Source of the DNA: a virus
DNA length: 64,000 bases
IMG/VR virus record: IMGVR_UViG_3300018080_000148
Span: 1 to 64,000 of that record
Direction: 5' to 3' (one strand)
Part shown: positions 10,453 to 32,603 of the stretch, piece after piece
Layout of the letters: every line of letters starts with the position of its first letter
Numbering within the stretch: position 1 is the stretch's first letter
Program-made: the position numbers and the translations under genes
Notes under the pieces: generated by a model
Told to the model about the DNA's origin: nothing
Seen by the model: only the letters and a program-made list of their open reading frames with translations
Database searches by the model: none

Positions 10453-10911
10453 ATGCGATCCCCAGGATTTTCAGATTTCAGAGAACTAATGGACAAATGG
10501 GACGAGGCCGTAGACCGCAAACAGATCCAAGACATGATAGAAGGTAACCACTTTGTCTTCTTTTTCAAGCGAAAAGACGAGGTATTCGGAGCCCCCGAGG
10601 AAAGCCGACTCACGTTCGCTAAGATGAAAAACCCCGACGAAGATGCTTCTGAAGAATGGATTAAGGACGCCTCGTTTGCCGCCGTTAACTTCAATCGAGC
10701 GCTCAAGGGCGAAAGTGTGAAAAGTGTTTTCAACGCCGAAGACCTCAAGCAGATCAAAGTCATCGAAAGAGACGAAGCCGTAGACGTATTGGTTAAAAAA
10801 GCCAGTGGTATGCCCGATAAGAACATCAAACAAGATCTGAGCGACAGCGAGGAAGACGTGCCAGAAGATCCAGCCGCATCCCCTACTATCAACAAGGTGA
10901 AGGAGCGGTAG
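10453..10911 (+). CDS. Hypothetical protein, possible capsid-targeted
   Basis: A 152-aa protein with an AGGAG site before ATG 10453. The N-terminus contains GFSDFRELMDKWDEAVD, a looser version of the tag shared by neighbours. A compact 100-aa domain follows, and then an acidic Ser/Asp/Glu-rich tail (about 128-145). Its stop overlaps the GTG of the next gene by one base. Function unknown; context suggests a virion-associated role. Confidence 0.65.
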   Translation: MRSPGFSDFRELMDKWDEAVDRKQIQDMIEGNHFVFFFKRKDEVFGAPEESRLTFAKMKNPDEDASEEWIKDASFAAVNFNRALKGESVKSVFNAEDLKQIKVIERDEAVDVLVKKASGMPDKNIKQDLSDSEEDVPEDPAASPTINKVKER

Positions 10912-11759
10912 TGGATTTCAGCTTTGCCCAGTGGTTAGAAGCAAACAACAAGTGGGGAATCCTCTCTTGGGATGGCAAGAGATGGTACGAAAGCTCCCAC
11001 ATGATGGGCGACCGAGCGGAAATCAAAGTCACTTGGCGTAGCAATGGGAAAGTGGATGTGGAAGTTGGCCCCAGACATCCCATGCTCAAAAGAGCGCTAA
11101 AAGTGCTCCTGAGACAACGGCCCGAATTCCGTGATGCGGAAATTGAGTTTGATGGATACTCTCCAGGAACCGTAGGCGAATTTATCAAGGGGCCCACACG
11201 CCCGCCGTGGGAAATGCCCCGCTACTTCTATCAGGGCACTTCTATGGATCGCTGGGATCGCATCCAGGATGAAGGTCTGGTGCCTCGATCTGAAACAGGC
11301 GTTAATCCCGCCTATGGGGCCCACATCAGTTCCGCCAAACCCTCTAACCCAGATTACGTCTACCTCGGAGGGTCACCAGGATCGGCCTGTAGCTTGGCAG
11401 CACATGACGCCGCAAGATTAGACAAAAGCCAACCAGTGATGCTACGAATTGATTCCCGAGGGATGAGGAAGAGCAAACTTCGGCCAGATGAAGATGCTAT
11501 TCCGAGGGGCGACCTCTACGGAAACCACGACTGGCAATATAGCATGAAAAGATTGGACTCTGTTGGATACGAAGGAAGCATAGATCCGAAGTTCATCGAA
11601 CTCTACAAGGTGTGGGACAAGAAATGGGTTGATCCACCGCCTCCACCCGAACCCGACTGGCTGGCCAAACAAGTAATGGGCATGGGCGGATCGGATTATC
11701 AGACCGTTCCAGGCACCACATCCGCTAAATACAAATGGGCCAACCCGAGAGAGGATTAG
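10911..11759 (+). CDS. ADP-ribosyltransferase-fold protein with capsid-targeting-like N-terminus
   Basis: The frame starts at GTG 10911 in a TAGTG overlap. The N-terminus MDFSFAQWLEAN carries the shared tag. From about residue 105, YFYQGTSMDRWDRIQDEGL, then VYLGG and AAHDAARL resemble ADP-ribosyltransferase/Tpt1-like folds. There the first motif is normally H-G-T; here His is replaced by Gln. Family knowledge: T4 Alt is a head-packaged, injected ADP-ribosyltransferase. I infer a comparable injected modifier, but activity with Q-G-T is uncertain. Confidence 0.55.
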   Translation: MDFSFAQWLEANNKWGILSWDGKRWYESSHMMGDRAEIKVTWRSNGKVDVEVGPRHPMLKRALKVLLRQRPEFRDAEIEFDGYSPGTVGEFIKGPTRPPWEMPRYFYQGTSMDRWDRIQDEGLVPRSETGVNPAYGAHISSAKPSNPDYVYLGGSPGSACSLAAHDAARLDKSQPVMLRIDSRGMRKSKLRPDEDAIPRGDLYGNHDWQYSMKRLDSVGYEGSIDPKFIELYKVWDKKWVDPPPPPEPDWLAKQVMGMGGSDYQTVPGTTSAKYKWANPRED

Positions 11760-18197: not shown

Positions 18198-18218
18198 TGA
18201 TTTCTCCCTAAAGACAGA

Positions 18219-18276
18219 TGGCGTGCGAGCCGAGGAATAAAATTCTTGGTGATGAAATATCGAGGCTCACACGCCA
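18219..18276. repeat. Long inverted repeat in gap before the helicase
   Basis: 13-nt arms (18219-18231 and 18264-18276) match with one mismatch around a 32-nt loop that contains its own small GAAT/ATTC hairpin. No U-run follows. It may be an attenuator or RNA-processing site in the leader of the helicase mRNA. Confidence 0.4.
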
Positions 18277-18297
18277 CCCTATATATGCAAACAGGAA

Positions 18298-18555
18298 CTA
18301 TCCCCCCTTCTTTCCAAATCGAGCCTCTTGTTCGGTCTTCACAGCGGCGTCGATTTTCTCCACCATGTCAAACCATTCCGAGCCACTGTTGGCATTGGAA
18401 AGCCATTTATCGATGTCGTGATCTTTGGAGAGTATCCTGGCAACGTCGGCGATGTCTCCGCTAAGCCGTTGCTTGAATCGCCCGCCCAGGAATGAAAGAT
18501 CTTCGTCAGAAAGCTTTCTCACATACTCGGTTACAATAACATCATCCTTTTTCAT
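18298..18555 (-). CDS. Small hypothetical protein, 85 aa
   Basis: A charged helical protein (KLSDEDLSFLGGRFKQRL in the first half) with no known motif. It starts 17 nt from the divergent 18573 gene and lies upstream of the helicase on the same strand. Confidence 0.6.
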   Translation of the reverse strand: MKKDDVIVTEYVRKLSDEDLSFLGGRFKQRLSGDIADVARILSKDHDIDKWLSNANSGSEWFDMVEKIDAAVKTEQEARFGKKGG

Positions 18556-18572
18556 CGTCCTATACCTCTATC

Positions 18573-18884
18573 ATGCGAGTAAAGGTTGATAACAGCAAAC
18601 TTGAAAAGCTACTTGCAACTCACTGGACTGAATTCTTGAGCGTCCGTGATGTACGCAACTTCTGCGCTGAAGTAGCCACCTTACATTTCGATTTGCATCC
18701 CCACTGTCAAATTCGGCAAATGTCCGTTTCGAGATTTGAGTTCCGCAAAAGTGCCGCAGATTTTATCTTATGGATAGACGTTACTATATCGCAACCCGAC
18801 AAACAAATCAAGGCGACTATTGAATGTTCATTCTCGTTGACAGGAGAATTGCTTTATGAAAACCATGCGCTAAATGATGTCTAG
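18573..18884 (+). CDS. Small hypothetical protein, 103 aa
   Basis: Starts at ATG 18573 without a clear ribosome site; TATACC lies 6 nt upstream. Mixed alpha/beta composition, no motif recognised. The end overlaps the convergent 18870-19148 gene by 15 nt. Could be a leaderless late gene like others in this window. Confidence 0.5.
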   Translation: MRVKVDNSKLEKLLATHWTEFLSVRDVRNFCAEVATLHFDLHPHCQIRQMSVSRFEFRKSAADFILWIDVTISQPDKQIKATIECSFSLTGELLYENHALNDV

Positions 18885-19148
18885 CGCTAATCCCTCCTCG
18901 TCTTCTCCCATGAAAACTAATTTGTCATCCGGGCAAGTGACGCCCACGTTGTATGTGTCAATGTACGTTGTTCGTTCATCCTGTGATGTCTGGACCCAAC
19001 AGTAATCGTCGCAGAGTTCCTTTCCACGCTTTCCTAGCTGTGTGATGCCTAGCGTAAGAACTGTTCCACCTGGAAGGGCCAATTGGATTTCTCCAAATTT
19101 TAGCAAGTGTGTGATGAGCAGATATTGGATTTTATCTTTCTTTGTCAT
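18870..19148 (-). CDS. Small hypothetical protein, 92 aa
   Basis: An AGGAGG-type site lies before ATG 19148. Predominantly beta-like (LALPGGTVLTLGITQLG, TTYIDTYNVGVTC). No recognised family. Convergent overlap of 15 nt with the 18573 gene. Confidence 0.6.
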   Translation of the reverse strand: MTKKDKIQYLLITHLLKFGEIQLALPGGTVLTLGITQLGKRGKELCDDYCWVQTSQDERTTYIDTYNVGVTCPDDKLVFMGEDEEGLALDII

Positions 19149-19205
19149 GGCATCGTCCTCCTATTAGGAATACAAAATATTTATCCTTAATAGGCGACAG
19201 GATGC

Positions 19206-19661
19206 TCAAATCAAATTTATTTGGTCTTGTTGCATGTAGGCGTACTCGAAACCCTCAAAACTACACATTTCAGTTTTTACCTCATAGGGTGATGGCATGG
19301 GCTTCCCCTCCTCGTCCACACACACCGTCCAACAATACACCTTTCGATTTGACTTGGGTATTTCCACTAGAGATAAATAACTACTGCCCAAGAATTTCTG
19401 GGCAATTTTCACAACGAGAGAAAACGGCAAGAAAGGCATGTCGTGGCCAAACACCTGTACCGTCTCTAGAAAGTGGCCATCATAGTCTGCTTTGCTGTAG
19501 TAAATTACAACATTGTAGCCATCCACCACCGTCTCAGCGACCTTCAATATGTGAATGTCGTCTTCAATGCGAGGATCATTCCTGGGGTAATTGTACGGCA
19601 CCAGCCTATCACCCAAGACTCTTTGCCTCTCAATTAAGTTGTCGAAATCTTCTACGTACAT
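19206..19661 (-). CDS. Hypothetical protein, 151 aa
   Basis: The frame could begin at GTG 19676, but ATG 19661 has GAGG 9 nt upstream and is preferred. The protein is beta-rich and aromatic, with no recognised motif. It lies 31 nt downstream of the amidoligase gene on the same strand. Confidence 0.55.
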   Translation of the reverse strand: MYVEDFDNLIERQRVLGDRLVPYNYPRNDPRIEDDIHILKVAETVVDGYNVVIYYSKADYDGHFLETVQVFGHDMPFLPFSLVVKIAQKFLGSSYLSLVEIPKSNRKVYCWTVCVDEEGKPMPSPYEVKTEMCSFEGFEYAYMQQDQINLI

Positions 19662-19691
19662 GTATGTTCGCCTCACACAGTTATATACTCA

Positions 19692-20738
19692 TTAAGACTT
19701 GTATTCGCTCCCATACATTGCATTCTCATCATTCGGCCACAAATATCTTTCCATGTCATCGCCATCCAAGCCCGCCGCTCGGATTGCCATCTCTAACTGT
19801 TCAATCGAAACCCGTCTGGCCTCCTGAGACCAAATCCCATCAGCCGGTGCTAATAAATTCTTCCTCAGCCTAGCCAAAAACCAATTGCGGGTCTGTTCCA
19901 TCCCTTTGGACATGCAACCCTCAGTAAACCCGAGCAGTTCCATTACATCCGCTAAATCAAGCCACAATAAACCCGTCCATTTATCTCCTCTTCTATACTT
20001 CTCTGGATAGGGGCGGTCCTTCGTCCGCTCCACAAAATGAAGCAGCAATTTAATCCAATTTTTTACCAAATAGGCGTCCAGACACCCTTCTGCCCCCATG
20101 GGCCTAAACTCCAACGTCCTGCGATCCCCAATAGTCACCCACTGGTACGTGTTGGCCGTATAATACTTGTCACTCAAAAAACCAATCAAGTTGCCGGGCG
20201 AAGGAAGCCGCTCGTGCGAAAAAAACTGGCTCTGGCCAATGCATTGGCAGTAACGATTTCTCTTCCTTGGAAAAGGCACAGAATCGAGAAAAATAGGCTC
20301 GCACTTGATCCAATGCGCCAGCACAGAACCCATCTGCAAATCATTCAGATCCCGCACCTCGGCGTGGAGGTGGAAAGAACAATCCTCTCCCACCTCTACT
20401 TGAGTATCTCGACCCAACAAATCAACCACCTGACAAATCCTTTTCAAGCCATACCAGCCCTGCGACACAGGCGAACATATCTCTATGCCACAACTCGCAT
20501 CCGTTTTGACGACCCAGTTTGGATTGTTCTGCGAAGCACGCACACGCCACCTGTTAATTGTTACCTTTTCACCAAGAAAATCTGCAAGGAGGTTGCCTAC
20601 ATAATGTATTCCTTGAGGAAGTTCCCTCCTCGCCAACGGATTTTCCCTGAAATTCCGCCTGTCAAATGAATTTAACTCAATCTCGGTTCCAAAACGACGA
20701 TTGTACCGGAATGTTAAAACGTCTTCGGGAGAGTCCAT
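19692..20738 (-). CDS. Putative amidoligase (ATP-grasp-like)
   Basis: The N-terminal RFGTEIELNSF (15-25), WVVKTDASCGIEICSPVS (about 74-91) and CSFHLHAEV (about 119-127) match the pattern of the putative amidoligase family (COOH-NH2 ligases). The family is inferred from structure to make amide bonds in peptides or cell-wall components. Length of 348 aa fits. No partner gene such as a GAT-like amidotransferase is beside it. Only weak ribosome-site bases precede the ATG. Confidence 0.65.
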   Translation of the reverse strand: MDSPEDVLTFRYNRRFGTEIELNSFDRRNFRENPLARRELPQGIHYVGNLLADFLGEKVTINRWRVRASQNNPNWVVKTDASCGIEICSPVSQGWYGLKRICQVVDLLGRDTQVEVGEDCSFHLHAEVRDLNDLQMGSVLAHWIKCEPIFLDSVPFPRKRNRYCQCIGQSQFFSHERLPSPGNLIGFLSDKYYTANTYQWVTIGDRRTLEFRPMGAEGCLDAYLVKNWIKLLLHFVERTKDRPYPEKYRRGDKWTGLLWLDLADVMELLGFTEGCMSKGMEQTRNWFLARLRKNLLAPADGIWSQEARRVSIEQLEMAIRAAGLDGDDMERYLWPNDENAMYGSEYKS

Positions 20739-20752
20739 TTATTAACCAATCA

Positions 20753-20781
20753 TTGACTTGACCTACCTCATAGATTATAAA
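20753..20781 (+). promoter_or_regulatory. Sigma70-type promoter for the 20803 gene
   Basis: TTGACT (20753-20758), 17-nt spacer, TATAAA (20776-20781), in the divergent gap. This is the closest match to the bacterial consensus in the window and suggests early transcription by host RNA polymerase. Confidence 0.65.
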
Positions 20782-20802
20782 GATAAATAGGAGACGTTGC
20801 CA

Positions 20803-21288
20803 ATGCCAAGAAAGAAGAATTACAAGTGCCTCCTCGTCAAAACCAAGGACAGGAGAAGCTTCTTCACCCACGAGAAAAATCTTCCTGAATTAGTAGAGTT
20901 TTCGAAAACGTTTGGAGCAGAAATATCTGTTGTCCAAGTTAAAGAAGCAGAAGTTCTCGATCTAGTCGGACTGGGCACAGCCATTTGCGATGCCGTCTAT
21001 GCGCCTAAGGCCCAACCCGACTACGAAATTATCGAAACCAAAATCCCCACACGAACCAAAAGACGGTCTCGTATCCTTAAGACTTCTCAAAAAATTCGTG
21101 AATTCATACGAGAGAAATTCTACAGTGGTGAAGTGGTGTCCCTCCAATCCTTGAAGAAGAGGTTCAAGCGATACCGACTCACCTCGGCTTGCTTGTGTAA
21201 CCATTTGAGAATCGTCCGAGAAGAACTAGAGTCCGAAGGACATTACGTCGAAAAAGTGGGCGGCGGGAAATACCAACTCCATAAATGA
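20803..21288 (+). CDS. Hypothetical protein with winged-helix-like C-terminus
   Basis: ATG 20803 is preferred over an in-frame TTG six bases earlier because AGGAG lies 9 nt before it. The N-terminal 80 aa are of unknown fold. The basic C-terminal half (KIREFIREKF through LCNHLRIVREEL to GGGKYQL) reads like a winged helix ending in a beta-wing. It may be a transcriptional regulator, expressed early given its promoter. Confidence 0.6.
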   Translation: MPRKKNYKCLLVKTKDRRSFFTHEKNLPELVEFSKTFGAEISVVQVKEAEVLDLVGLGTAICDAVYAPKAQPDYEIIETKIPTRTKRRSRILKTSQKIREFIREKFYSGEVVSLQSLKKRFKRYRLTSACLCNHLRIVREELESEGHYVEKVGGGKYQLHK

Positions 21289-21292
21289 AAAA

Positions 21293-21319
21293 AGCCCACC
21301 GGCCTTGGGCCGGTGGGCT
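21293..21319 (-). terminator. Rho-independent terminator after recA
   Basis: 12-bp perfect stem (21293-21304 with 21308-21319), TTG loop, six T on the minus strand. It also ends the convergent plus-strand gene. Confidence 0.85.
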
Positions 21320-21335
21320 CCTTCAACACCATCAC

Positions 21336-22775
21336 TCACTCGCCTTCGCTCAACATTTCGTCCAACGGATTTGCGATCTCTTCATCGCCACCTTCCACGG
21401 GGACATTTTGTGTAGTGTCACTCGTGGACAACTCGATGGCTGCGCCGTAAACGTTCAAGTAATCCACCGCCTCTTGTTCCGTCTCGGCATCAATGATGGC
21501 CGGGCACTTTTGGACCAGTTCAGCAGGAATATCATTCCTCACTTCTGAGGACTTGAACTTGATCTCGCTGTCACCACACCAAGGCTCCAACACCTTGTAA
21601 TTGCCAGACGATACCTTCTCAACACGACCTGCGGCCATCATCACTGACAAAAGGCCACCCAGCGGGTTTACACCTTTGTCGAAATACAGTTGCACTTCGG
21701 ACGTGTTCAAGAACGGTGTGAAACATCGACTCTTGGTGTTGCGGAAACGTAAATTCACACCCAGGGATTTACTGGTGTGTTTGCTGGTGCGCTTCTTATC
21801 TTCCTTCGCTTCAATCTTGGCACCCGCCGCCGTTCTCACTCGACAAGAACAGTAAAACTCCAACGCCTTGCCGCCGCCAGCCCCCGTCTCATCGGAACCA
21901 AACTGCACGCCGATCTTTTGGCGAAGCTGGTTGATGATAAACAGGGTGGCATTGTTCTCGCTCAAGAAGGGGTTGAGTTTGCGGAGGGCATCACCTGCGG
22001 CTCGGGCACGTTCGCCCGGCTTCTCCAGGGAGCCCACGATCTTCTTGAACTGCTCCTTGGTGTAGGTCTCAGGCAGATCCGTTTCTTTCCATTCACGCTC
22101 GGTTGGTGTTACACCAATCGAATCCCACATGAAACAAATGGGTGTATCAGTCCCGTAATGGGCACGAATTTTATTCGTGAGGTTGGTGATCTTGGTCACC
22201 ACCTGCTCGATGCTGATCGGCTCAGCTACCACCAGCTTGCTGGTGTCCACGTGGGCTGCGGTTTCGGCAAAGACCGGGTTGGATGCTCGTTCGCAATCCA
22301 ACATCACGGCAATCCCACCCATTCGCTGGGTAGCGCCCAAAACCGTCAATCCCAACAGCGACTTGCCGCCAGCGGGCGGACCATACACTTCGGTAATCTT
22401 ACCACCGGGCACACCGCCCCCGATAAACTTGCCGCTGCAAATATAGTTCAATGCTAGGTTGCCGGTGTCAATGAAATATTGACTTTTCCCCACGTCCTGT
22501 AGCATCTTAACGCCAGCACTCTTCTCTAACTCGTCGAAGAATGCATCCACCTTCTTTTTCCTCGCCATAACCTCATAGCTCCCATATTTATCATGCTTTT
22601 CATGTTCGATCCTCTGAAATATGTCTCTCTCCTGCTCAAGCCACTCCGAGTGGAATTCACGAGGAGACAGTTCCCTTTTGAGCCTCAGCCAAACACTGAT
22701 TCGCTCCCTGGCCAAACACACCCCATACCAATACTCTTCATTCTTTTCATGCTCATGTATCCAGTAATTTTTCAT
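21336..22775 (-). CDS. RecA/UvsX-like recombinase with N-terminal extension
   Basis: Walker A GPPAGGKS (about 132-139), Walker B-like ICFMWDSIG and loop residues FIINQLRQK define RecA. It forms filaments on ssDNA and drives recombination-dependent replication and repair. The start is ATG 22775, preceded by AAGGAGG, giving 479 aa. About 69 charged helical residues precede the usual RecA start at MARKKK (22568). An internal start there, with GGGAG 10 nt upstream, is possible and would give two isoforms. The tail is acidic. Confidence 0.85.
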   Translation of the reverse strand: MKNYWIHEHEKNEEYWYGVCLARERISVWLRLKRELSPREFHSEWLEQERDIFQRIEHEKHDKYGSYEVMARKKKVDAFFDELEKSAGVKMLQDVGKSQYFIDTGNLALNYICSGKFIGGGVPGGKITEVYGPPAGGKSLLGLTVLGATQRMGGIAVMLDCERASNPVFAETAAHVDTSKLVVAEPISIEQVVTKITNLTNKIRAHYGTDTPICFMWDSIGVTPTEREWKETDLPETYTKEQFKKIVGSLEKPGERARAAGDALRKLNPFLSENNATLFIINQLRQKIGVQFGSDETGAGGGKALEFYCSCRVRTAAGAKIEAKEDKKRTSKHTSKSLGVNLRFRNTKSRCFTPFLNTSEVQLYFDKGVNPLGGLLSVMMAAGRVEKVSSGNYKVLEPWCGDSEIKFKSSEVRNDIPAELVQKCPAIIDAETEQEAVDYLNVYGAAIELSTSDTTQNVPVEGGDEEIANPLDEMLSEGE

Positions 22776-22814
22776 GTGCCTCCTTAGATGTAACTCCCTC
22801 CAAAAGAACAAAAA

Positions 22815-22842
22815 ACAAGCCGGGCCATTTGGCCCGGCTTGT
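22815..22842 (-). terminator. Rho-independent terminator after ssDNA-binding protein gene
   Basis: 12-bp perfect stem (22815-22826 with 22831-22842), ATTT loop, followed on the minus strand by six T. Separates the SSB gene from recA. Confidence 0.85.
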
Positions 22843-22856
22843 CGAAGGAGCGACGA

Positions 22857-23849
22857 CTACTCAATGTCGATGCCCTGGATTTGGGCCATAAAGTCGTCTT
22901 CGGATAGCGGCTTGCTTTCACTCACTTCCGGTTCCGCCTTGGCCTCGGGAGCAGCCTCGGGGGCGGGCTCTTCGGCCTTGGTGGTGGTGGTCACGGTGAC
23001 GGTGGCTTCGACTTCGGAACCGCTGTCTTCCTGGGTAGCACTGCCACCTTGGAATTCGGTCGGGTCGAATTCGGAATCCTCGTCCTTCTCCAGACCGAGG
23101 TGAACCTTCAACTGGTGCTTCAGCGGCTCGTATTCGAGCAAGCCGTTTTCACGCAAAGCAGCCAAGTCGTGGAGGTTGGCCAGCCATTCCTTGACCTGAT
23201 CGGGGTCGCCGAGCGGCGACACGTCGAGGAACTTGGAATCGCTGTAGTTCGGGTAAGCTTCTCGACCACTCTGACGCATCGTCTTGATGATCTTGAAGTC
23301 CCGACCGGTCTTCAGGTCGGTCACGTCACCCAACGGATCTTCGTTCAACTCCTTGTCACCCACGATGGCGGTGATGATTCTCTTGTGAAGCGTCTTGCCG
23401 ACGCTGAGAATCTTCGGGCCGACGTTTGTCTCGACCTCGCCGTTGGAGTTGACTTGTTGTCGAACAAGCACGTTGTAGTAGTAACGCTCAATCGGCTTGA
23501 TGGCTCTGGCGTTGTTTTGCGTTTGCTCAGCCAGATCCGGAGCCTGCTTTTCAGACTCCTGCCACAACCAATTGTAGTAACGACAGACGGGGCAGTCACC
23601 CATCCAACGCTTGTCTTCAAGCTGCTTGAGGCACTGATAGTTGCGCCCGTTCAGCTTGTGGACTCGTGTGGACTGGTAAAAGGGAGGCTTCTCCCGATTG
23701 AATGTCCCCTTGGGGGCGGGCGGCAGCAGTCTGACGACCACCACGCCGTTACCATCCGGCATCTTGACGAAGTTGTTCAGGAAACCGGCACCGGGCTGAG
23801 TGTTCAGCCGTTCGTTTTCTTGGATCAGTTCTTGAATGTCTAATCCCAT
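22857..23849 (-). CDS. ssDNA-binding protein, T4 gp32-like
   Basis: A 330-aa protein. The central zinc module (HKLNGRNYQC...CPVC, about 64-91) and the following aromatic core match gp32. The C-terminal 90 residues are Glu/Ala/Pro-rich and acidic, the partner-binding tail typical of SSBs. It coats ssDNA at the replication fork and works with RecA/UvsX, whose gene follows after a terminator. The leader carries a short tandem repeat that could be an autoregulatory site. Confidence 0.85.
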   Translation of the reverse strand: MGLDIQELIQENERLNTQPGAGFLNNFVKMPDGNGVVVVRLLPPAPKGTFNREKPPFYQSTRVHKLNGRNYQCLKQLEDKRWMGDCPVCRYYNWLWQESEKQAPDLAEQTQNNARAIKPIERYYYNVLVRQQVNSNGEVETNVGPKILSVGKTLHKRIITAIVGDKELNEDPLGDVTDLKTGRDFKIIKTMRQSGREAYPNYSDSKFLDVSPLGDPDQVKEWLANLHDLAALRENGLLEYEPLKHQLKVHLGLEKDEDSEFDPTEFQGGSATQEDSGSEVEATVTVTTTTKAEEPAPEAAPEAKAEPEVSESKPLSEDDFMAQIQGIDIE

Positions 23850-23870
23850 ACTCTCATCTCCTCATTCAGT

Positions 23871-23890
23871 TACAGAAAGTTACAGAAAGT
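23871..23890 (-). repeat. Tandem 10-nt repeat in the SSB leader
   Basis: TACAGAAAGT occurs twice back to back, about 21 nt upstream of the SSB start, in an unstructured A/T-rich stretch. T4 gp32 represses its own mRNA by binding an unstructured leader (established); a similar role here is inference. Confidence 0.35.
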
Positions 23891-23951
23891 TAAACAGTTA
23901 TGCAAAGGTATGATCGGCTTTTATGGTTCCAAATTTTCCAAAATCCGAAAA

Positions 23952-24461
23952 TTATTTTTCCTCCTCTTCTTTTCGGATGTCTTCCCGTACTTGCATGATT
24001 ACCTCGCCGAGCCAATTCTTACCTCTCCACTTACTCTTATCATGCGCTCGGGGGTCGTCCTCACCGAGGGCGATTCCCCAAATATCATCGTAAGGACTGG
24101 CCTCGACTATAGTCTTCTCGCCAGTTTCCATCAAGACCAACTTCATGCCTTCATTTTGAGTGAACTTAGCGTAATTCGCCTTGTACACAACATTCCAACA
24201 GTAAGGTTTTCCATTGTCTTGAATTTCTTCCCATTTGGCCTTATTAAAGCCACGAACCCTGCGACCCCAACTCTTTTGGGTCTTGGGGTCATATGCTTGC
24301 ATGATTTTCGCTTCGGCCTGCTTATCGCCGAATAATCTGGCCTTTTCCGCCATCATATACTGCTCGTTGCAGTTGTAAGTTACCCCATCGATCTCAATGT
24401 CAACATGGTTCCACTGCGAGAAAGGCCCGCCCCAAAACAAATGAAATTGTTCCTCCGACAT
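23952..24461 (-). CDS. NADAR-family protein (YbiA-like N-glycosidase / ADP-ribose remover)
   Basis: A 169-aa protein with FWGGPFSQW, NEQYMMAEKA, DPKTQKSWGRRVRGF, the VEASPYDDIWGIAL block and GKNWLGEVIMQVR. Together these match the NADAR family closely end to end. Family knowledge: NADAR proteins cleave N-glycosidic bonds, and some remove ADP-ribose from guanine in DNA. In a phage it could undo host ADP-ribosylation defence or salvage metabolites. AAGGA lies 8 nt before ATG 24461; the J-domain gene diverges 13 nt away. Confidence 0.85.
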   Translation of the reverse strand: MSEEQFHLFWGGPFSQWNHVDIEIDGVTYNCNEQYMMAEKARLFGDKQAEAKIMQAYDPKTQKSWGRRVRGFNKAKWEEIQDNGKPYCWNVVYKANYAKFTQNEGMKLVLMETGEKTIVEASPYDDIWGIALGEDDPRAHDKSKWRGKNWLGEVIMQVREDIRKEEEEK

Positions 24462-24463
24462 GC

Positions 24464-24469
24464 TAAATA
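24464..24469 (+). promoter_or_regulatory. Late-promoter-like TAAATA box, 5 nt before ATG
   Basis: TAAATA, then five bases, then ATG 24475 of the J-domain protein. No ribosome site, so a leaderless mRNA is implied. Confidence 0.5.
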
Positions 24470-24474
24470 TCCTT

Positions 24475-25590
24475 ATGGAATTTCGTGAATGGCTCTTATG
24501 GGAAGCTGGCTACGGGCCAGTTACCGATCCTTACGAAGCTCTTCAGCTTCTTGGATTGGATGATTATAGCGGAAAAAGGCTTGATGACACAATATTAAGT
24601 TCGGCCTACAGGATAGCGGCACGCAAAACCCACCCCGACTCCGGTGGAGACAAAGAAGAATTCCAAAAGGTTGCCGCAGCATATGAGATATTAAGGGCAT
24701 TCGCCGACAGTGGGCAAACTCTCCCAACCACCCCCGGCCAGACAAGAGCCCATACGGGATTTGGTAGTGGATTCGGCACAAGGCCACCAGCCCCGAACGT
24801 GCCCACAAGAGACAGGCCAGAAGAGGCACCTGTATATTCAGAAGCCGATCTTAAGCAATGGGCAGAACAAGTCGCTGCTAAAGGATTTGTACAAGTCATT
24901 CAAAAAGAAAAAAAAGACACCTTGGGCGCAATGGGGCATTGGCAATATCCCATGGGCAGTAAAGTTCGCACCTGGAAACTGTCCCGTTTTGGGAACGACA
25001 ACCCCGAAGGTATCATCACTACCGTCCGGGACATCATGCGACAAGCTAGGGTTGAAGAGCCTTGGGCTGATAAAGTGGTCCAAATTAACATTTATGATGC
25101 TTACGCTTTCATCAACTTCATATGGCCGCTCTCAGAAGATGCCATAGAACATAACAAGAGAACAGCGGCACATTTATCTAGATTGTTTGGGCGTGAATAC
25201 AAGGCCGATACCTTTGGCTACTGCACCATAGAATTTAACGCTCCTCCGAAACCCAAGAAAAAAGGCGGCGGCATGAAAGCCAATGCGGTTTCTGAATACC
25301 TAGCAAACAATGGATTGAGATACGTGGGCGGTGGCGGCAAGAACACCTACTACGGGCTGACGGCACACCAAGAAGGAAAAACACCATTGGGGTACGTTGT
25401 GAAATTGCAAAAAGCCGTATTCAAGTGTGTTTATCGCTACCGCTACACAGGTGGCTACCGATCCGAAATTAGAGAAGTTGAAAAGTTCAGCAAACCCTAC
25501 GGCCAATTAACGCCCGAGATCCTCGACAAAGTGATCGAATGGGTTAAGGCGATGTACGAAAAACACGGTCTTGGTGAAGATAGGGACTAA
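24475..25590 (+). CDS. J-domain (DnaJ-like) protein with capsid-targeting-like N-terminus
   Basis: ATG 24475 is preferred over 24460 because it places the late box 5 nt upstream and exposes the tag MEFREWLLWEAGYG (possible cleavage after LWE). Residues 18-75 are a J-domain with the HPD signature (53-55), which stimulates Hsp70 ATPase. A Pro/Gly-rich linker (about 80-115) follows, then a 250-aa domain of unknown type. I infer a co-chaperone packaged in the head and delivered on infection. It meets the minus-strand gene in a 4-nt overlap. Confidence 0.8.
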   Translation: MEFREWLLWEAGYGPVTDPYEALQLLGLDDYSGKRLDDTILSSAYRIAARKTHPDSGGDKEEFQKVAAAYEILRAFADSGQTLPTTPGQTRAHTGFGSGFGTRPPAPNVPTRDRPEEAPVYSEADLKQWAEQVAAKGFVQVIQKEKKDTLGAMGHWQYPMGSKVRTWKLSRFGNDNPEGIITTVRDIMRQARVEEPWADKVVQINIYDAYAFINFIWPLSEDAIEHNKRTAAHLSRLFGREYKADTFGYCTIEFNAPPKPKKKGGGMKANAVSEYLANNGLRYVGGGGKNTYYGLTAHQEGKTPLGYVVKLQKAVFKCVYRYRYTGGYRSEIREVEKFSKPYGQLTPEILDKVIEWVKAMYEKHGLGEDRD

Positions 25591-25961
25591 CGGTTCATCA
25601 CGTTGGACAAATCAACCCATCCCCATCTCGGGTATTCTCCGGGATTTTGAGGGGCCATAGCCGCTTCGGTGTAGTTCCAGTCTTGCCCCATCTCAGTCGA
25701 GTGTCGGACATGAATGCACTTCCCCTCCCCGTCCAATTGATGCAACGCATCGCAAATACCATCCTGATAGTCGCACTCTTCGGCCATAGCCAGAAGCTCG
25801 TCCAGCGGATAGTCGTCATCAGACCACCCCATTCCAAGACAATCATAACTGTTGATGCGAACAAACTCTTGCCCTGCTGGACTTTCCAACACCAAGTAGT
25901 TTAAGGGATGCTTCTCATCAAAAAGCTCACGAAGCCTCTTCATCTTCAGCCAGTAATTCAT
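25587..25961 (-). CDS. Hypothetical protein, 124 aa
   Basis: ATG 25961 is chosen because AGGA lies 6 nt upstream; the longer frame from 25985 lacks a site. An acidic protein with DSDDDYPLDELLAMAEECDYQDG-like character; no family recognised. Its start lies inside the end of the preceding gene in another frame. Confidence 0.5.
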   Translation of the reverse strand: MNYWLKMKRLRELFDEKHPLNYLVLESPAGQEFVRINSYDCLGMGWSDDDYPLDELLAMAEECDYQDGICDALHQLDGEGKCIHVRHSTEMGQDWNYTEAAMAPQNPGEYPRWGWVDLSNVMNR

Positions 25962-26478
25962 CTTTTGTCCTAACCAATGCACCACTGCACATGGTCATTG
26001 TTTTCTCTCGCATCATCGTTAATGCTTCTTGAATTCCAACATCTGGCAATTCCGGCAAGCCGAACTTTTTCAAAACTTCAATCGGGACTATAATGGTTGA
26101 AGATTCATCTTCCTGTTTTTCAAAATCTTCAATCACTTCAAGTTCATTACCTGGAATGTGTCCAATGTGCGGAAGGTCTTTACATGCCTCCCTCTCCCAG
26201 GAGCGGAAGTTCTTCTCGTGTTCATAAGAATGAAAAACAACCGGTGTGATGACTACCTCGGCTCCACCATTGATTACCTGCAACCCCTGTGTGATGGTGC
26301 AATTACCATACACATCTTTAAAGTCAAAACTCTCGGGGTCTATCCAAGTGGCCGCATCTTCCTCTTTGATGTGTACATCACAACGCCTAACATAAAGTGA
26401 ACTGGAATGAGGGTATCGAATGAACCTTTGTCCCTCAAGCTTCCTGAGGGCGTCCTTAGGAATCGCTTTGTTTTCCAT
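25927..26478 (-). CDS. Hypothetical protein, 183 aa
   Basis: ATG 26478 has GGAG 7 nt upstream. The longer frame from 26820 is only the shadow of the neighbouring gene. Contains a beta-rich centre (NCTITQGLQVINGGAEVVIT) and an acidic C-terminus. No motif recognised. It overlaps the upstream zinc-ribbon gene by 23 nt. Confidence 0.6.
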   Translation of the reverse strand: MENKAIPKDALRKLEGQRFIRYPHSSSLYVRRCDVHIKEEDAATWIDPESFDFKDVYGNCTITQGLQVINGGAEVVITPVVFHSYEHEKNFRSWEREACKDLPHIGHIPGNELEVIEDFEKQEDESSTIIVPIEVLKKFGLPELPDVGIQEALTMMREKTMTMCSGALVRTKDELLAEDEEAS

Positions 26479-27103
26479 GACAATCTCCACAAAGGTACTC
26501 GAACATGTTATTGGTGCCCCAAAACAATTCTTTGCCGGTGTCTTGAGTTTTGCCACATTTGGAGCAATGCATCGGTCTGATTTTATGCTGGACCTCATCA
26601 CACTTCTCTGAAAGCGCCCGCATCTTCTGAAACAACTCTGCACCATAAATGCGGCCCGTGTGTTTATCATCCGCTTCCTGGAACTCGCCTCGGAGCTTCT
26701 TCTGGATCTTTTTTCGTCGGCTGCAACACGACCTTGTTTTGCGTTCGGCCCGAAGACCCTGCTGCTTGGAAGCAAAGTTGGCCTTAATCCCTTCCATGAG
26801 TTTGTGGCCCGCACTCTCATTCCTGGTCTTTACCTGCACCGAAAAAGACTGCTTGTCACTCACCATTTCCTTGGGAACCTCTTTCCACTCCACTCCCGAG
26901 TCAATTCCCGCTCTTTCCAGTTTCCTCGCCACCTTCACATCTTTGGCTGCGATTTTCTTCGCCCGAGCTACATCCCCCGACGTGAGATTGTCCCCCCGAG
27001 TCAACTTGTAAGTCACCAGGGCATCCTTCACTATCTCCAATACCTTCAGACGATTTTCCTCCTGCTTCTCCGCTTCCTGTAGCCAAAAGTTCTTGCTGCT
27101 CAT
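26456..27103 (-). CDS. Coiled-coil protein with C-terminal zinc ribbon
   Basis: ATG 27103 follows an AGGAGA site (215 aa); the frame upstream of it is not used. The protein is Lys/Glu-rich and helical, ending in CSKCGK...CGDC, a zinc ribbon. The start lies within the tail of the membrane-protein gene. Function unknown; nucleic acid binding is plausible. Confidence 0.65.
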   Translation of the reverse strand: MSSKNFWLQEAEKQEENRLKVLEIVKDALVTYKLTRGDNLTSGDVARAKKIAAKDVKVARKLERAGIDSGVEWKEVPKEMVSDKQSFSVQVKTRNESAGHKLMEGIKANFASKQQGLRAERKTRSCCSRRKKIQKKLRGEFQEADDKHTGRIYGAELFQKMRALSEKCDEVQHKIRPMHCSKCGKTQDTGKELFWGTNNMFEYLCGDCHGKQSDS

Positions 27104-27341
27104 TTTCTCTCCTGAATAGCGACCATAATTGCGGCAGGTCTCTCTTAAAGGCATTGACGAACTGGTGCCGCACCGGCCAGATCGCATAAACCATGAACAA
27201 GGGGAACGATATGGCAAACACACCAACCCACCACATCCACATGGGCGTGATGGCCAGGGCAAACAAAATACACCCCAGCGCTATCACAATGTCAATCGTC
27301 TCATCCTTCAGACTCGTCCACCAAGATTTCTGGCGGTCCAT
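26901..27341 (-). CDS. Two-helix membrane protein overlapping the next gene
   Basis: The start is ATG 27341 (or 27350). Residues about 15-35 and 38-57 form two hydrophobic segments (IVIALGCILFALAI; WWVGVFAISFPLFMVYAI) with a short turn. The last 68 residues are Gly/Ser/Glu-rich and are read out of frame through the first 203 nt of the zinc-ribbon gene. The membrane part looks real. The tail may be a by-product of a lost stop. Confidence 0.55.
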   Translation of the reverse strand: MDRQKSWWTSLKDETIDIVIALGCILFALAITPMWMWWVGVFAISFPLFMVYAIWPVRHQFVNAFKRDLPQLWSLFRRENEQQELLATGSGEAGGKSSEGIGDSEGCPGDLQVDSGGQSHVGGCSSGEENRSQRCEGGEETGKSGN

Positions 27342-27759
27342 CTTCCTCATCTCCTATGTGCGCCTCGATTCCTTTTGCCTTAAGTTCTTCCTTGGCCCTC
27401 TTCTCAAGCTCATCGAGTTTTTCTTTCAGAGTCGTCAGCCCTTCAGCCTCCAACTCCTCATTGAGTTTTTTCTTCTCGCCCTCCTCCTTAAGATACTCTT
27501 CTTCCAAGGCTTCTAGAATCTGGTAATTCTTCTCTAGCTGCGCCCGAACCTCTTCCTCCCGCCGCTCATCACGCTCCTTCTGTTTTTCGGGATCATTGAT
27601 GATGGGACGAATTTTCTCACGGGTTCTGTGGGCTGCCCGCTCGGCACGCTTCCTTGCACGATTATCGGCTTTGATTTTCTCACTCCGACGTTGAGCCTTC
27701 TTTTTCCTGTCAGCTTCCTTGCTATGCTTCTTGCGTTCTTTGAGTTTTTTGTTACCCAT
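27301..27759 (-). CDS. Highly charged coiled-coil protein
   Basis: The start ATG 27759 overlaps the previous stop (ATGGGTAA). A 152-aa protein: the first half is Lys/Arg-rich (KKAQRRSEKIK, RARKRAERAAHR), the second Glu/Leu-rich with heptad character. No enzymatic motif. Could be a scaffold-like or DNA-binding protein. It is in the same operon as the capsid-like gene, upstream in transcription. Confidence 0.65.
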   Translation of the reverse strand: MGNKKLKERKKHSKEADRKKKAQRRSEKIKADNRARKRAERAAHRTREKIRPIINDPEKQKERDERREEEVRAQLEKNYQILEALEEEYLKEEGEKKKLNEELEAEGLTTLKEKLDELEKRAKEELKAKGIEAHIGDEEDGPPEILVDESEG

Positions 27760-28390
27760 TAAACCTAATTGCCTCCACGGTTGTGCCGCCTTGCTCACGA
27801 GTGGGCAGCCAGATTGTCTTCCACGTATTGGGCAGGCGATCATTCAATTCCTTGAAAACACGATCCTTCATGCGTTCAACGAAAGCCTCTGCCTTTTCAG
27901 TTGGAAGTTGACCAACTTCCACATAAAAGATCAACAGCCCCTCAAGAGGCGGCTGGTCCAACTCGGTCTTCTTGGCCTCTATGAAATTATAATACTTGGA
28001 AAGTGCTTCTCCAAGCTTCTTCTCGTCCACAATGTCTGGATGCTTCATTGGAGGGAGTTTTCTTTTAACTTCATCTTCAGCCTTAACTCTTTTCATGAAC
28101 TCCTCCAACTCTTCACCTTCTAGCCCATCATACACTTCGGCGTTTGAGGGAACTTCCTGATAGTGGGAAACCAAGTGTTTGCAATAGGCGTTCGTGTCTA
28201 TTGGGTGCTCTGCTGGCCTAGTCATATCGAGCATGTCATCCTCTACTGGATCGCAATAGCTGCACTTACAACCTTGTTTGTGATCGGCTGCAAGCTCGTC
28301 TCTATGCTTAAGCGAGTCCCTATCAAGCTTCTTTTGATATTCCCCAATCCTGTTAGACTGTTCCTCCCAATAATTTTCCACACTGTTCAT
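27752..28390 (-). CDS. Hypothetical protein with short Cys motif
   Basis: A 212-aa protein, acidic, with HKQGCKCSYCDPVE (about 37-50), a possible metal-binding knuckle. The C-terminal half has a mixed fold without recognised motifs. Same-strand gene in the 27-31 kb operon. Confidence 0.65.
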   Translation of the reverse strand: MNSVENYWEEQSNRIGEYQKKLDRDSLKHRDELAADHKQGCKCSYCDPVEDDMLDMTRPAEHPIDTNAYCKHLVSHYQEVPSNAEVYDGLEGEELEEFMKRVKAEDEVKRKLPPMKHPDIVDEKKLGEALSKYYNFIEAKKTELDQPPLEGLLIFYVEVGQLPTEKAEAFVERMKDRVFKELNDRLPNTWKTIWLPTREQGGTTVEAIRFNG

Positions 28391-28391
28391 G

Positions 28392-29159
28392 TTATCCCCT
28401 TAAATCTGGTACTCCGAATTTGTCATCCACCCCATCCCAAGCCAACGTTGGCTCTTCACCAGCCGGTGGGCCCTGATTCTCAAATGGACCATCCAACTTG
28501 CCCGGCAAGTTGAAGTGAATGCTGTTGATTGTTCTTTTTTGCCCTGCATCATCGACTGTTACATAGTCCATCCCCGCCTGCGCATTGGGATTGGGCTTCT
28601 CATCATAAATCGGGTACTTTTGCCCCCGAGTAAATGGAAGCCCTCGCTTGGCAATCTCATCCCGCAGAAAAGCGGGCGGATCAAACACCTCTTCCCGTAA
28701 CGCACGACCAAGATTGACGGGCGCACGTGGCTGCGGAGCAGTCACGTTGGGTCTTCTTGGGGGAGATGCCCCTCCCTGCTGTTGAATAATTTGCCCCAGC
28801 AAGTCGGGATTCGCAGCCAACAAGGCCGCTAATTGATCTCTCGGATTAGACGACTCTTCCGGAGATTCTTCTGAGACCATGGCCGTGGGGCCATCGTCGA
28901 ACTTGAACTTCTTGTTTTTAATCATGAAGCCGTCATCGACTTCTCTGTAGTTCAACTTCTTCTTGGTGTACTCGTAGATCTCCACATCCGTCACTAAAAT
29001 ATTACGACGTGCCAATTGTGCAAAGATCTTGGCGGCGGCTGCCTCTAAAGGAATGTCGTCATTGGCTTTGCCCACTCGAACCTTCCGGGTCAACACTTCA
29101 TCGCCATATTTTCCTTTTTCAATTTCCTCCTGAAAATGAAATATCAGTTCATAACCCAT
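28392..29159 (-). CDS. Hypothetical protein, 255 aa
   Basis: The N-terminal 95 aa look like a small alpha/beta domain. Residues about 100-150 are a Gln/Pro/Ala-rich linker (IIQQQGGASPPRRP), and the C-terminus is Pro/Gly/Asp-rich. No family recognised. One of a run of same-strand genes behind the capsid-like gene, so a virion or assembly role is possible. Confidence 0.65.
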   Translation of the reverse strand: MGYELIFHFQEEIEKGKYGDEVLTRKVRVGKANDDIPLEAAAAKIFAQLARRNILVTDVEIYEYTKKKLNYREVDDGFMIKNKKFKFDDGPTAMVSEESPEESSNPRDQLAALLAANPDLLGQIIQQQGGASPPRRPNVTAPQPRAPVNLGRALREEVFDPPAFLRDEIAKRGLPFTRGQKYPIYDEKPNPNAQAGMDYVTVDDAGQKRTINSIHFNLPGKLDGPFENQGPPAGEEPTLAWDGVDDKFGVPDLRG

Positions 29160-29167
29160 GTTGCTCC

Positions 29168-29707
29168 TTACCAGCTATCCACGCCTGCAAATTCGCCTCG
29201 ATATTCATACTGATGGTACTCACCAGTCAGATCATGCTGAGTCTTGGTGCGGACCTTCTGTGCGAAGATCTTCATCCTCTTGTAAAGACGCATGAAATGA
29301 ACCAACTCCTGAGCATTGGGATCAGACAAACCCATCTCTTCTAAGATGTCAGCGTCCGTGATCGTCGGCTTCTTCGGATCAAGAAACGCCTTGTGTCTAA
29401 ACTTACTGTGTGACGAAGGGAAGGCCGACTGGTTTACAATCGAAAACAAGCCGGAATAAATCCCCACCAAAAGGGTTGTGAGCCTATTGGGCGGCTTGCC
29501 ATCTATCACAGAAGACCTACGAGTGGCCTTTTCCCAACCATACTTGCGTTCATACTCGCCCGCATCCATGGTAAAGAATTCCTTGTTTTCCTCGGTCAAC
29601 TCCTTGCAGTATCGATCAAGATCCAGGTGTTGCCACCCAATTTCTTCTTCCCATTTCTTACGTGCGGCCTCTTCGTCAGCCTTGTTTTCCCATACGTTCT
29701 TAGCCAT
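29168..29707 (-). CDS. Hypothetical protein, 179 aa
   Basis: ATG 29707 lies in an 8-nt overlap with the preceding stop (ATGGCTAA), with GAGGAG upstream. The first 60 aa are Trp/Glu/Lys-rich helices; the middle is hydrophobic (TTLLVGIYSGLFSIV). No motif recognised. Directly follows the capsid-like gene. Confidence 0.65.
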   Translation of the reverse strand: MAKNVWENKADEEAARKKWEEEIGWQHLDLDRYCKELTEENKEFFTMDAGEYERKYGWEKATRRSSVIDGKPPNRLTTLLVGIYSGLFSIVNQSAFPSSHSKFRHKAFLDPKKPTITDADILEEMGLSDPNAQELVHFMRLYKRMKIFAQKVRTKTQHDLTGEYHQYEYRGEFAGVDSW

Positions 29708-30659
29708 CTTCTTCATTCTCCTCGTTATTAGGTGAGTAACCATGCACTTGAATCCGTCCATAGAATTCCGGGAACGGCATGGCTTTGCCATACCTGGACA
29801 TAATCCTCTCTTCCCGAACGTTCAGGCCGGGGATTTTCACAGGAGAAATAAAAAGAGTGACGTATGGGCAGTAGAAATACCCACTAGAATAAAAATCGCC
29901 CTTGTGCCCCACCAAAATCGTCCCCTCTTGACAAGATGGGTGTGCATAAACCTTTTGCCTGCCCATCGCACCTCTATGGAAACTCTTTATGTCAAACTCA
30001 TCCTGTTCCAATAGAGTAGAGGCCAACTGTGGCGTAGTCAAAATCCAGGTGGGTTGACGACCACCTTGCTTTTCAACTCGGCCCATCGTCATTCGCAAGT
30101 GGGCTTCCAGGTCATCTCTGTTCTTCCATTGGTGTTCAGAAGTTGTTGGCGCATTCCTGGCCACGTCATTGATGACCTCCACGTTCATCTTGTTGACAAG
30201 CCACTCTGCATATTCAGCACAAGCCTCTGCTTCCGCATCTAGATTGTGATCTTCACTTGATGGCCGAGATGGCATTCGCTGAAGAGAAGCCGTCTTGGCT
30301 TTAACCGCACGAGAACGAATGTTACCATACAAGTCTCGATACGCAATAGAATGTTCGGCCCCCATCATTGTTTGGACCGAACCAATCTGAAAGCCAATAA
30401 AAGAAGACGGGTTGATGACCCTGCGGACAATGGGAATACTTACCCGCTTGAGATAAGGGAAGTATTCATTGAAAAATTCCGTAACTTCCTTCAGGTCGCC
30501 ATGCGTTTCGTTGATGGTTCTCTGGCTATCTAACGCAAGAGCCACCTGTTCTTTCTCTAAGTTGTCTACGATCCCTCTTAACAATCCAGTGCTTTCCCAG
30601 AGATCTACTATTTGCTGTTTCTGACTCAAAATCCTTTCGTGTACTGATACTTCATCCAT
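29700..30659 (-). CDS. gp23-like major capsid / vertex protein
   Basis: The C-terminal third has GYFYCPYVTLFISPV followed by RIMSRYGKAMPF, close to the GxFYCPYVPL...RYG signature of T4 gp23-type HK97-fold capsid proteins. WESTGLLRGIVDN and the VALALDSQ stretch near the N-terminus resemble its start. At 319 aa it is much shorter than T4 gp23 (521 aa), so it might be a reduced shell or vertex protein. GGAGG precedes ATG 30659. Assigned from pattern, not alignment. Confidence 0.55.
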   Translation of the reverse strand: MDEVSVHERILSQKQQIVDLWESTGLLRGIVDNLEKEQVALALDSQRTINETHGDLKEVTEFFNEYFPYLKRVSIPIVRRVINPSSFIGFQIGSVQTMMGAEHSIAYRDLYGNIRSRAVKAKTASLQRMPSRPSSEDHNLDAEAEACAEYAEWLVNKMNVEVINDVARNAPTTSEHQWKNRDDLEAHLRMTMGRVEKQGGRQPTWILTTPQLASTLLEQDEFDIKSFHRGAMGRQKVYAHPSCQEGTILVGHKGDFYSSGYFYCPYVTLFISPVKIPGLNVREERIMSRYGKAMPFPEFYGRIQVHGYSPNNEENEEDG

Positions 30660-30671
30660 ACTGCCTCCTAA

Positions 30672-31298: not shown

Positions 31299-31328
31299 TC
31301 TTGACCTTTCTAAAATAAAGAGACCCAC

Positions 31329-31422
31329 CCCTATCGCCCTAGTTTACCGTTGAGGACTTGAGATGGGCTGGATATGTAAACCGGCAAAGCCGGGTAGTCC
31401 AACCTTTCGGTTATATAGAGAG
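31329..31422. other. Short gap with stacked hairpins
   Basis: On the minus strand AACC-GAAA-GGTT (a GNRA-type hairpin) is followed by CCGGC-TTT-GCCGG, and GGACT (5') can close with AGTCC about 40 nt later. It forms the leader of the 31298 gene. A regulatory leader is possible; no known riboswitch core was recognised. Confidence 0.3.
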
Positions 31423-32323: not shown

Positions 32324-32384
32324 GCTTCCATTCCCATTTAACATGTCCATCCATGATATTACATTCAAGAAATTGCATCAAGGC

Positions 32385-32563: not shown

Positions 32564-32603
32564 TCTGCCACGGGATGAAGATGGACCTCAATCCAGGATT
32601 TTA

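What the first reader, a model, noticed from the sequence alone, without database searches (positions are those of the whole stretch)
23952..24461. NADAR protein as a candidate anti-defence enzyme
The NADAR match is strong end to end. Some NADAR proteins remove ADP-ribose from guanine in DNA, acting as antidotes to DarT-type toxins. With a putative ADP-ribosyltransferase in the same genome, this phage may hold both a writer and an eraser. It is next to SSB and RecA, on the DNA side of the map.
Basis: partly seen in the sequence, partly recalled or inferred. Interest (0 to 1): 0.7.

Follow-up and report, generated by a model that had tools for sequence, protein, structure and literature searches.

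The report
Phage enzyme that erases ADP-ribose
This uncultivated T4-like phage carries an intact enzyme of a known family (NADAR) that probably removes ADP-ribose tags from guanine in DNA or RNA, most likely as an optional shield against bacterial toxins that attach such tags; many other phages carry similar genes, so it is a good but not exotic example.

Summary
Observation confirmed. The gene lies on the minus strand (24461 to 23952, 169 aa): Pfam NADAR E = 1.2e-47, AlphaFold model pLDDT 97, best solved match the ADP-ribose-bound Phytophthora NADAR 8bau. The catalytic residues (E33, K40, E120) and 10 of 12 checked active-site positions are kept.

Interpretation partly supported. The enzyme is not the T4 gp30.3 type (His at the catalytic position) nor close to E. 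coli YbiA (28%). It is closest to the sigma70-linked E. coli NADAR (41%), which hydrolyses guanine-ADP-ribose in vitro and partly rescues DarT1 toxicity in cells (PMC11125620). It also keeps the lysine (K63 = E. coli C7 K115) needed for antitoxin activity; YbiA and T4 gp30.3, which fail to rescue, lack it. NADAR is absent from 43 related phage contigs and all 84 related loci, which conserve SSB and mostly RecA; here it sits in an expanded variable slot (4.5 kb against a median 0.6 kb). So it looks like accessory cargo; the SSB/RecA neighbourhood is not evidence of joint function.

The writer-plus-eraser idea is unsupported: no ART family scores significantly, the two ART-like proteins are weak candidates, and DarT was found in 0 of 50 genomes with close NADAR relatives. 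New member of a known kind.

The parts
23952..24461 (-). NADAR (YbiA-fold) ADP-ribosyl-guanine hydrolase, 169 aa, catalytic E33, K40, E120
23850..28391 (.). expanded variable slot between conserved gene 28392-29159 and SSB: 4543 nt here, median 598 nt (171-2660) in 69 relatives; 23850-27751 has no counterpart in any related locus
24475..25590 (+). divergent neighbour with a DnaJ/J-domain near the N-terminus and an MEFREWLLWEAG N-terminal tag (first ATG at 24460); absent from relatives
22857..23849 (-). gp32-type single-strand DNA-binding protein, conserved in all 84 related loci (context, not part of the cargo)
21336..22811 (-). RecA/UvsX-type recombinase, conserved in 71 of 84 related loci (context)
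10911..11759 (+). weak ADP-ribosyltransferase-like candidate (KptA-like stretch, sub-threshold) with an FSFAQWLEA N-terminal tag; inserted between two genes that are adjacent in relatives

Best explanation
The gene encodes a catalytically intact NADAR hydrolase that cuts the N-glycosidic bond between ADP-ribose and guanine in nucleic acid, using E33, K40 and E120 around the distal ribose (activity inferred from conserved residues and from tested relatives). It is made in the infected cell as accessory cargo, and most likely keeps phage (and perhaps host) nucleic acids free of guanine ADP-ribosylation put there by host defence toxins of the DarT1 or YarT type or by other guanine-specific ADP-ribosyltransferases. 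Shown here: family, fold, intact active site, sub-type, accessory position. Inferred: substrate, expression during infection, anti-defence role, identity of the opponent.
For: Family and fold. Active site: Phytophthora NADAR residues E43, K50, K75, G78, R79, V81, W89, E125, D130, W133 are identical in this protein (only D86 and R93 differ), and E33, K40, E120, D125, W128 are invariant in 159 relatives. Sub-type: 41% identity to the EPEC sigma70-linked NADAR, 28% to E. coli YbiA, and only about 20% to T4 gp30.3, which has His at the E120 position. In PMC11125620 all four E. coli/phage NADAR types removed ADP-ribose from guanosine in vitro; in cells only the DarT1-linked one, and partly the sigma70-linked one, rescued DarT1. 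In PMC11543638, K115 of the E. coli C7 NADAR is dispensable for catalysis but needed against DarT; the matching lysine is K63 here, K in the EPEC protein and in 154 of 159 relatives, but A in YbiA and Q in T4. Accessory status: absent from all 84 related loci and from 43 related contigs by profile; slot 4543 nt against a median of 598. No GTP cyclohydrolase II, NAPRTase, Macro or NUDIX gene in the record, so no riboflavin or NAD-salvage context.
Against: No assay. T4's own NADAR is active in vitro but did not protect from DarT1 in cells (PMC11125620), so activity does not imply anti-defence function. DarT (PF14487) was found in 0 of 50 records or genomes carrying close NADAR relatives. NCBIfam names the protein riboflavin-intermediate N-glycosidase (TIGR02464, 151 bits, cut-off 73.7), and the only NCBIfam NADAR anti-phage model that matched scores 53 against a cut-off of 240. 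Host and its defences unknown. PMC9503650 argues that most phage NADARs act on small ADP-ribose derivatives rather than macromolecules. The K63 correlation rests on four tested enzymes.
Confidence: 0.5

Rival explanations
1. It acts on small NAD-derived molecules (cyclic ADP-ribose variants or other ADP-ribose derivatives) used by host immune systems as signals or toxins, not on DNA or RNA.
For: Proposed for phage NADARs in general from genome context (PMC9503650, PMC7824862). A jumbo phage relative (XacN1) sits with NMN adenylyltransferase/ADPr pyrophosphatase and nicotinate phosphoribosyltransferase. The active site grips ADP-ribose itself.
Against: No Macro, NUDIX or NAPRTase partner in this record. 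All NADARs tested in PMC11125620 and PMC11833690 act on guanine-linked ADP-ribose. The conserved K63 position is linked to antitoxin function rather than catalysis (PMC11543638).
Confidence: 0.22
2. It is a metabolic house-cleaning enzyme like YbiA, cleaving reactive riboflavin-pathway intermediates made by the host.
For: NCBIfam TIGR02464 riboflavin biosynthesis intermediates N-glycosidase at 151 bits, cut-off 73.7; catalytic Glu of the YbiA class.
Against: Only 28% identical to E. coli YbiA, which sits on a very long branch in the tree; no GTP cyclohydrolase II in the record; no obvious benefit of riboflavin detoxification to a lytic phage (inference). The model name is not a functional test.
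Confidence: 0.1
3. Writer and eraser of the same phage: a virion-packaged phage ADP-ribosyltransferase modifies guanine in host nucleic acid and this NADAR protects or resets the phage's own.
For: An ART-like protein (10911-11759) carries an N-terminal tag that resembles the T4 capsid-targeting sequence while NADAR does not; both genes are insertions absent from relatives.
Against: The ART candidate has no significant family match and a poor model (pLDDT 41.6); the genes are 12 kb apart; phage ARTs with known targets act on proteins (T4 Alt, ModA, ModB: annotation).
Confidence: 0.05
4. It is part of the phage's DNA replication/recombination machinery, as its place beside SSB and RecA suggests.
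For: Same strand, directly upstream of gp32-type SSB and RecA, so possibly co-transcribed.
Against: 84 related loci keep SSB, and 71 keep RecA, with no NADAR; the slot between is variable.
Confidence: 0.04

Closest known systems
Sigma70-linked stand-alone E. coli NADAR (EPEC E2348/69, 187 aa, next to rpsU-dnaG-rpoD)
   Same: 41% identical over 153 residues, same E/K/E catalytic set, same lysine (K63 equivalent), same EASPxDxIWGI and WxGKN motifs; tested guanosine-ADP-ribose hydrolase with partial DarT1 rescue (PMC11125620)
   Different: Chromosomal housekeeping operon instead of phage cargo; extra N-terminal residues; no NGKPYCW insertion
Phytophthora nicotianae NADAR (PDB 8bau, ADP-ribose bound)
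   Same: Best solved match by sequence profile (6e-31) and fold (TM 0.79); 10 of 12 checked active-site residues identical; hydrolyses DarT1- and ScARP-made guanine-ADP-ribose (PMC11543638)
   Different: D86 and R93 contacts not conserved; eukaryotic; carries N-terminal and internal extensions
Phage T4 NADAR gp30.3
   Same: Phage-encoded, same superfamily, active on guanosine-ADP-ribose in vitro (PMC11125620)
   Different: His instead of catalytic Glu, lacks the K63 lysine, about 20% identical, does not rescue DarT1 (PMC11125620)
DarT1-linked NADAR (DarG1, BC4488 subfamily)
   Same: NADAR hydrolase with the K115-type lysine and catalytic Glu/Lys pair
   Different: DarT1-linked enzymes use Asp at the last-strand position; this one uses Glu, and no DarT gene is found with its relatives
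E. coli YbiA (PDB 2b3w)
   Same: Fold and catalytic Glu class
   Different: 28% identity; lacks the lysine; shorter C-terminal loop; proposed riboflavin-intermediate N-glycosidase
NADARs of other phages (Pamexvirus and relatives, jumbo phages; 693 of 50,697 phage records match)
   Same: Up to about 51% identical, same motifs
   Different: Different phage lineages and gene neighbourhoods; often annotated as YbiA or GTP cyclohydrolase

Membership tests
NADAR superfamily (PF08719) | Profile match over the whole domain above the curated cut-off | tested here: met
   162.7 bits against 35.1, positions 11-163 of 163
NADAR superfamily (PF08719) | YbiA fold | tested here: met
   AF2 pLDDT 97.2; Foldseek top hits 8bau and 2b3w
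NADAR superfamily (PF08719) | Conserved catalytic Glu and Lys (Phytophthora E43, K50) | tested here: met
   E33 and K40, invariant in 159 relatives
NADAR superfamily (PF08719) | Hydrolysis of guanine-linked ADP-ribose | not testable with these tools
   Needs a biochemical assay
YbiA-type (Glu) NADAR subfamily | Glu at the last-strand catalytic position | tested here: met
   E120
Phage gp30.3 NADAR type | His at the last-strand catalytic position | tested here: not met
   Glu here; T4 has His
BC4488 / DarT1-linked NADAR (DarG1) | Asp at the last-strand catalytic position | tested here: not met
   Glu E120, with I118 two residues earlier
BC4488 / DarT1-linked NADAR (DarG1) | darT gene in the same operon | tested here: not met
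   No DarT beside the gene: neighbours are SSB, RecA and a J-domain protein; 0 of 50 relatives' genomes or records
BC4488 / DarT1-linked NADAR (DarG1) | Lysine equivalent to E. coli C7 K115 | tested here: met
   K63
Riboflavin-intermediate N-glycosidase (TIGR02464, YbiA) | Score above the equivalog-domain cut-off | tested here: met
   151.2 bits against 73.7
Riboflavin-intermediate N-glycosidase (TIGR02464, YbiA) | Activity on riboflavin pathway intermediates | not testable with these tools
   Needs an assay; GTP cyclohydrolase II absent from the record
NADAR family anti-phage protein DS32_2 (NF053876) | Score above cut-off 240 | tested here: not met
   53 bits
Phage anti-defence protein | Accessory, sporadic gene in a variable slot | tested here: met
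Phage anti-defence protein | Restores phage growth on a host with the matching defence | not testable with these tools
   Needs a plating assay
ADP-ribosyltransferase (10911-11759 +) | Significant match to an ART family | tested here: not met
   No Pfam match; KptA 10.2 bits against cut-off 26, E = 0.029; NCBIfam KptA E = 0.13

The most novel reading that the evidence does not exclude
The phage carries a two-sided ADP-ribose strategy: a head-packaged, newly recognised guanine ADP-ribosyltransferase (10911-11759, with a capsid-targeting-like tag) injected to modify host nucleic acid, and an untagged NADAR made in the cell to keep the phage's own nucleic acid clean.
Probability: 0.04. Interest if true: 0.85.

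Novelty: new member of a known kind. Interest (0 to 1): 0.4.

Why it matters
Phage NADARs are common but their role in infection is open, and the best-studied phage case, T4, is active in vitro yet fails against DarT1 in cells. This protein belongs to another branch, the one whose tested bacterial member does partly rescue, and it keeps the lysine tied to antitoxin function. It therefore makes a sharp, cheap test possible: does that sub-type (rather than NADAR activity as such) predict a phage antidote to guanine ADP-ribosylating defences? Its position as lineage-specific cargo also shows that neighbourhood with SSB and RecA should not be read as shared function.

Tried and rejected
1) SSB/RecA neighbourhood as functional evidence: rejected, because both are conserved in relatives without NADAR. 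2) T4 gp30.3-type phage NADAR: rejected by the catalytic residue and distance. 3) A DarTG1 system carried by the phage: rejected, Asp and darT both missing (DarT1 could be missed by PF14487, whose sensitivity for DarT1 was not checked). 4) The phage ART: single-sequence AlphaFold model useless (pLDDT 41.6); no relatives in viral contigs or named phages; no solved match; only a hint of KptA. 5) NAD salvage, Macro, NUDIX and riboflavin genes in the record: none found. 6) Shared neighbourhood with the closest viral NADARs: none (apart from one VWA-domain gene match). 7) The NGKPYCWN insertion as a host marker: shared with two planctomycete MAG proteins and one viral one, but the tree does not group this protein with them, so no host call. 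8) Rfam in 15000-33000: nothing. The careful bootstrap tree did not finish; only the quick tree is used.

Full report
What is there. The reported interval holds one uninterrupted reading frame on the minus strand (24461 to 23952, 169 aa, P0001). It matches Pfam NADAR over the full domain at E = 1.2e-47 and PHROG 1017, unknown function, at 3.1e-46. A 40-sequence alignment gave an AlphaFold model with mean pLDDT 97.2 and pTM 0.92. Against all solved structures only two are significant, the ADP-ribose-bound Phytophthora nicotianae NADAR 8bau (E 1.2e-09, TM 0.79) and E. coli YbiA 2b3w (6e-08, TM 0.78); by profile 8bau is much closer (6e-31 against 4.5e-17).

Where it is. The window is part of an 89,922-base virus record of a large T4-like phage: gp32-type SSB, RecA/UvsX, DnaB-type helicase, family A DNA polymerase and a Gp23-like capsid protein; SbcCD-like (gp46/47) genes lie near the end of the record (Pfam SMC and metallophosphatase matches in the set; mapped by inspection). 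Searching with SSB and RecA brought 84 related loci. They keep the order conserved gene (28392-29159) - SSB - RecA - amidoligase-like - helicase, but none holds a NADAR or the divergent J-domain neighbour, and the Pfam NADAR profile finds nothing in 43 of these contigs searched whole (many are fragments). The stretch 23850-27751 has no counterpart in any of them. The interval between the conserved gene and SSB is 4543 nt here against a median of 598 nt (171 to 2660) in 69 relatives. The NADAR gene is therefore lineage-specific cargo in a variable slot. Its codon usage is nevertheless among the most phage-typical (rank 69 of 75), so it is not a very recent arrival (inference).

What kind of NADAR. 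Published work splits the family by the residue on the last strand: Glu in the YbiA class, Asp in DarT1-linked enzymes, His in phage gp30.3 proteins (PMC11125620; PMC11543638). This protein has Glu (E120). E33, K40, E120, D125 and W128 are invariant across 80 viral and 79 bacterial relatives (the query letters printed there are wrong because a gapped copy was indexed, the correct ones are). Of twelve active-site positions named for the Phytophthora enzyme, ten are identical; D86 is K74 and R93 aligns with C88. T4 gp30.3 has His at the Glu position and lacks the following motif. In a quick tree this protein sits among intermingled viral and bacterial NADARs; T4 gp30.3 and E. coli YbiA are on very long branches.

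The comparison that bears on function. PMC11125620 tested four E. coli/phage types: all removed ADP-ribose from guanosine in vitro, none acted on thymidine, but against DarT1 in cells only the DarT1-linked enzyme rescued fully and the sigma70-linked one partly; YbiA and T4 gp30.3 did not. I fetched the latter three sequences. This phage protein is 41% identical to the sigma70-linked enzyme, 28% to YbiA and about 20% to T4 gp30.3. PMC11543638 reports that K115 of the DarT1-linked E. coli C7 enzyme (Phytophthora K75) is dispensable for catalysis but needed to counteract DarT. The equivalent is K63 here, Lys in the sigma70-linked enzyme and in 154 of 159 relatives, Ala in YbiA and Gln in T4. So among the enzymes tested in cells the lysine goes with rescue. 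That is four data points, a prediction and not proof, but it separates this protein from T4's and gives the anti-defence reading more support than T4's precedent alone.

What argues for caution. The NCBIfam model for riboflavin-intermediate N-glycosidase is passed comfortably (TIGR02464, 151 bits against 73.7), while the NCBIfam NADAR anti-phage model (NF053876) is far from passed (53 against 240). DarT (PF14487) was found in none of 50 records or genomes with close relatives, so a DarT partner is not typical of this branch, although the sensitivity of that model for DarT1 was not checked. PMC9503650 argues that most phage NADARs target small ADP-ribose derivatives, and one relative in jumbo phage XacN1 does sit among NAD-salvage genes. 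In this record I found no Macro, NUDIX, NAPRTase or GTP cyclohydrolase II gene.

The writer. No protein scanned with Pfam matched an ART family in the tables shown (the last is cut at 25 of 38 families). Two proteins look ART-like by eye: 10911-11759 (+), with a sub-threshold KptA stretch (10.2 bits, cut-off 26, E = 0.029), and a 120-aa protein at genome 79817-80179 (-) with no match. The first is also an insertion: in relatives its two neighbours are adjacent. It could not be modelled without relatives. 'Writer and eraser' is therefore a hypothesis without family-level evidence, and the T4 ARTs with annotated targets modify proteins, a bond NADARs are not known to cut.

Conclusion. Shown: family, fold, intact active site, sub-type, accessory position. 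Inferred: guanine-ADP-ribose hydrolysis (likely, about 0.85), anti-defence role against a host guanine-specific ART (about 0.5). Phage NADARs are common (693 of 50,697 phage records match; PMC9503650 counts them in 27% of myoviruses), so this is a new member of a known kind.

Noticed in passing
window 9567-9956 -, 9956-10414 -, 10911-11759 +, 24475-25590 +, 38580-40049 -, 41592-42380 -, 42794-43438 +; genome (L008/L009) 65831-66280 -, 79817-80179 -, 82532-83074 +, 85250-85723 +: About eleven otherwise unrelated proteins begin with a short tag of the form [F/Y]xx[W/F][L/I/V] followed by an acidic residue (e.g. MEFREWLLWEAG, MDFSFAQWLEA, MKNFAQFLENKE, MKTFDEFL). A strict form of the pattern also picks T4 internal head proteins IPII and IPIII (MKTYQEFIAE), whose N-terminus targets proteins into the capsid; strict matches here 5 seen (one probably spurious) against 0.4 expected by shuffling. 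Probably a capsid-targeting sequence in this phage group; NADAR lacks it.
   Followed up: partly
L256 418-816 - and 2459-3271 +; L257 524-931 - and 2068-3003 +: Related phages carry the same kind of N-terminal tag on other proteins, including an HD-domain-like protein (MGFKEWLVEEG, MEFRNWLLGEG) and proteins starting SFRKFVEDK or SFRKFLEEE.
   Followed up: partly
window 10911-11759 +: ART-like protein (sub-threshold KptA match) inserted between two genes that are adjacent in relatives; no relatives in the viral or named-phage collections searched.
   Followed up: partly
window 24198-24224 (NADAR residues about 80-88): NG[KR]PxCWN insertion shared with two planctomycete MAG proteins (L176, L179) and one viral NADAR (L098), absent from the other relatives; may hint at host or gene exchange.
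   Followed up: partly
window 29700-30659 -: Gp23-like capsid protein of only 319 aa among replication genes (PHROG 138, 3.2e-08; a Gp23 Pfam match in that set), with counterparts in only 7 of 84 related loci; perhaps a second or remodelled capsid gene.
   Followed up: no
phage records H2, H14, H16, H18, H24, H27, H30, H37: Several phage NADARs are annotated as 'GTP cyclohydrolase (II)', apparently a wrong transfer from plant fusion proteins (cause inferred).
   Followed up: no
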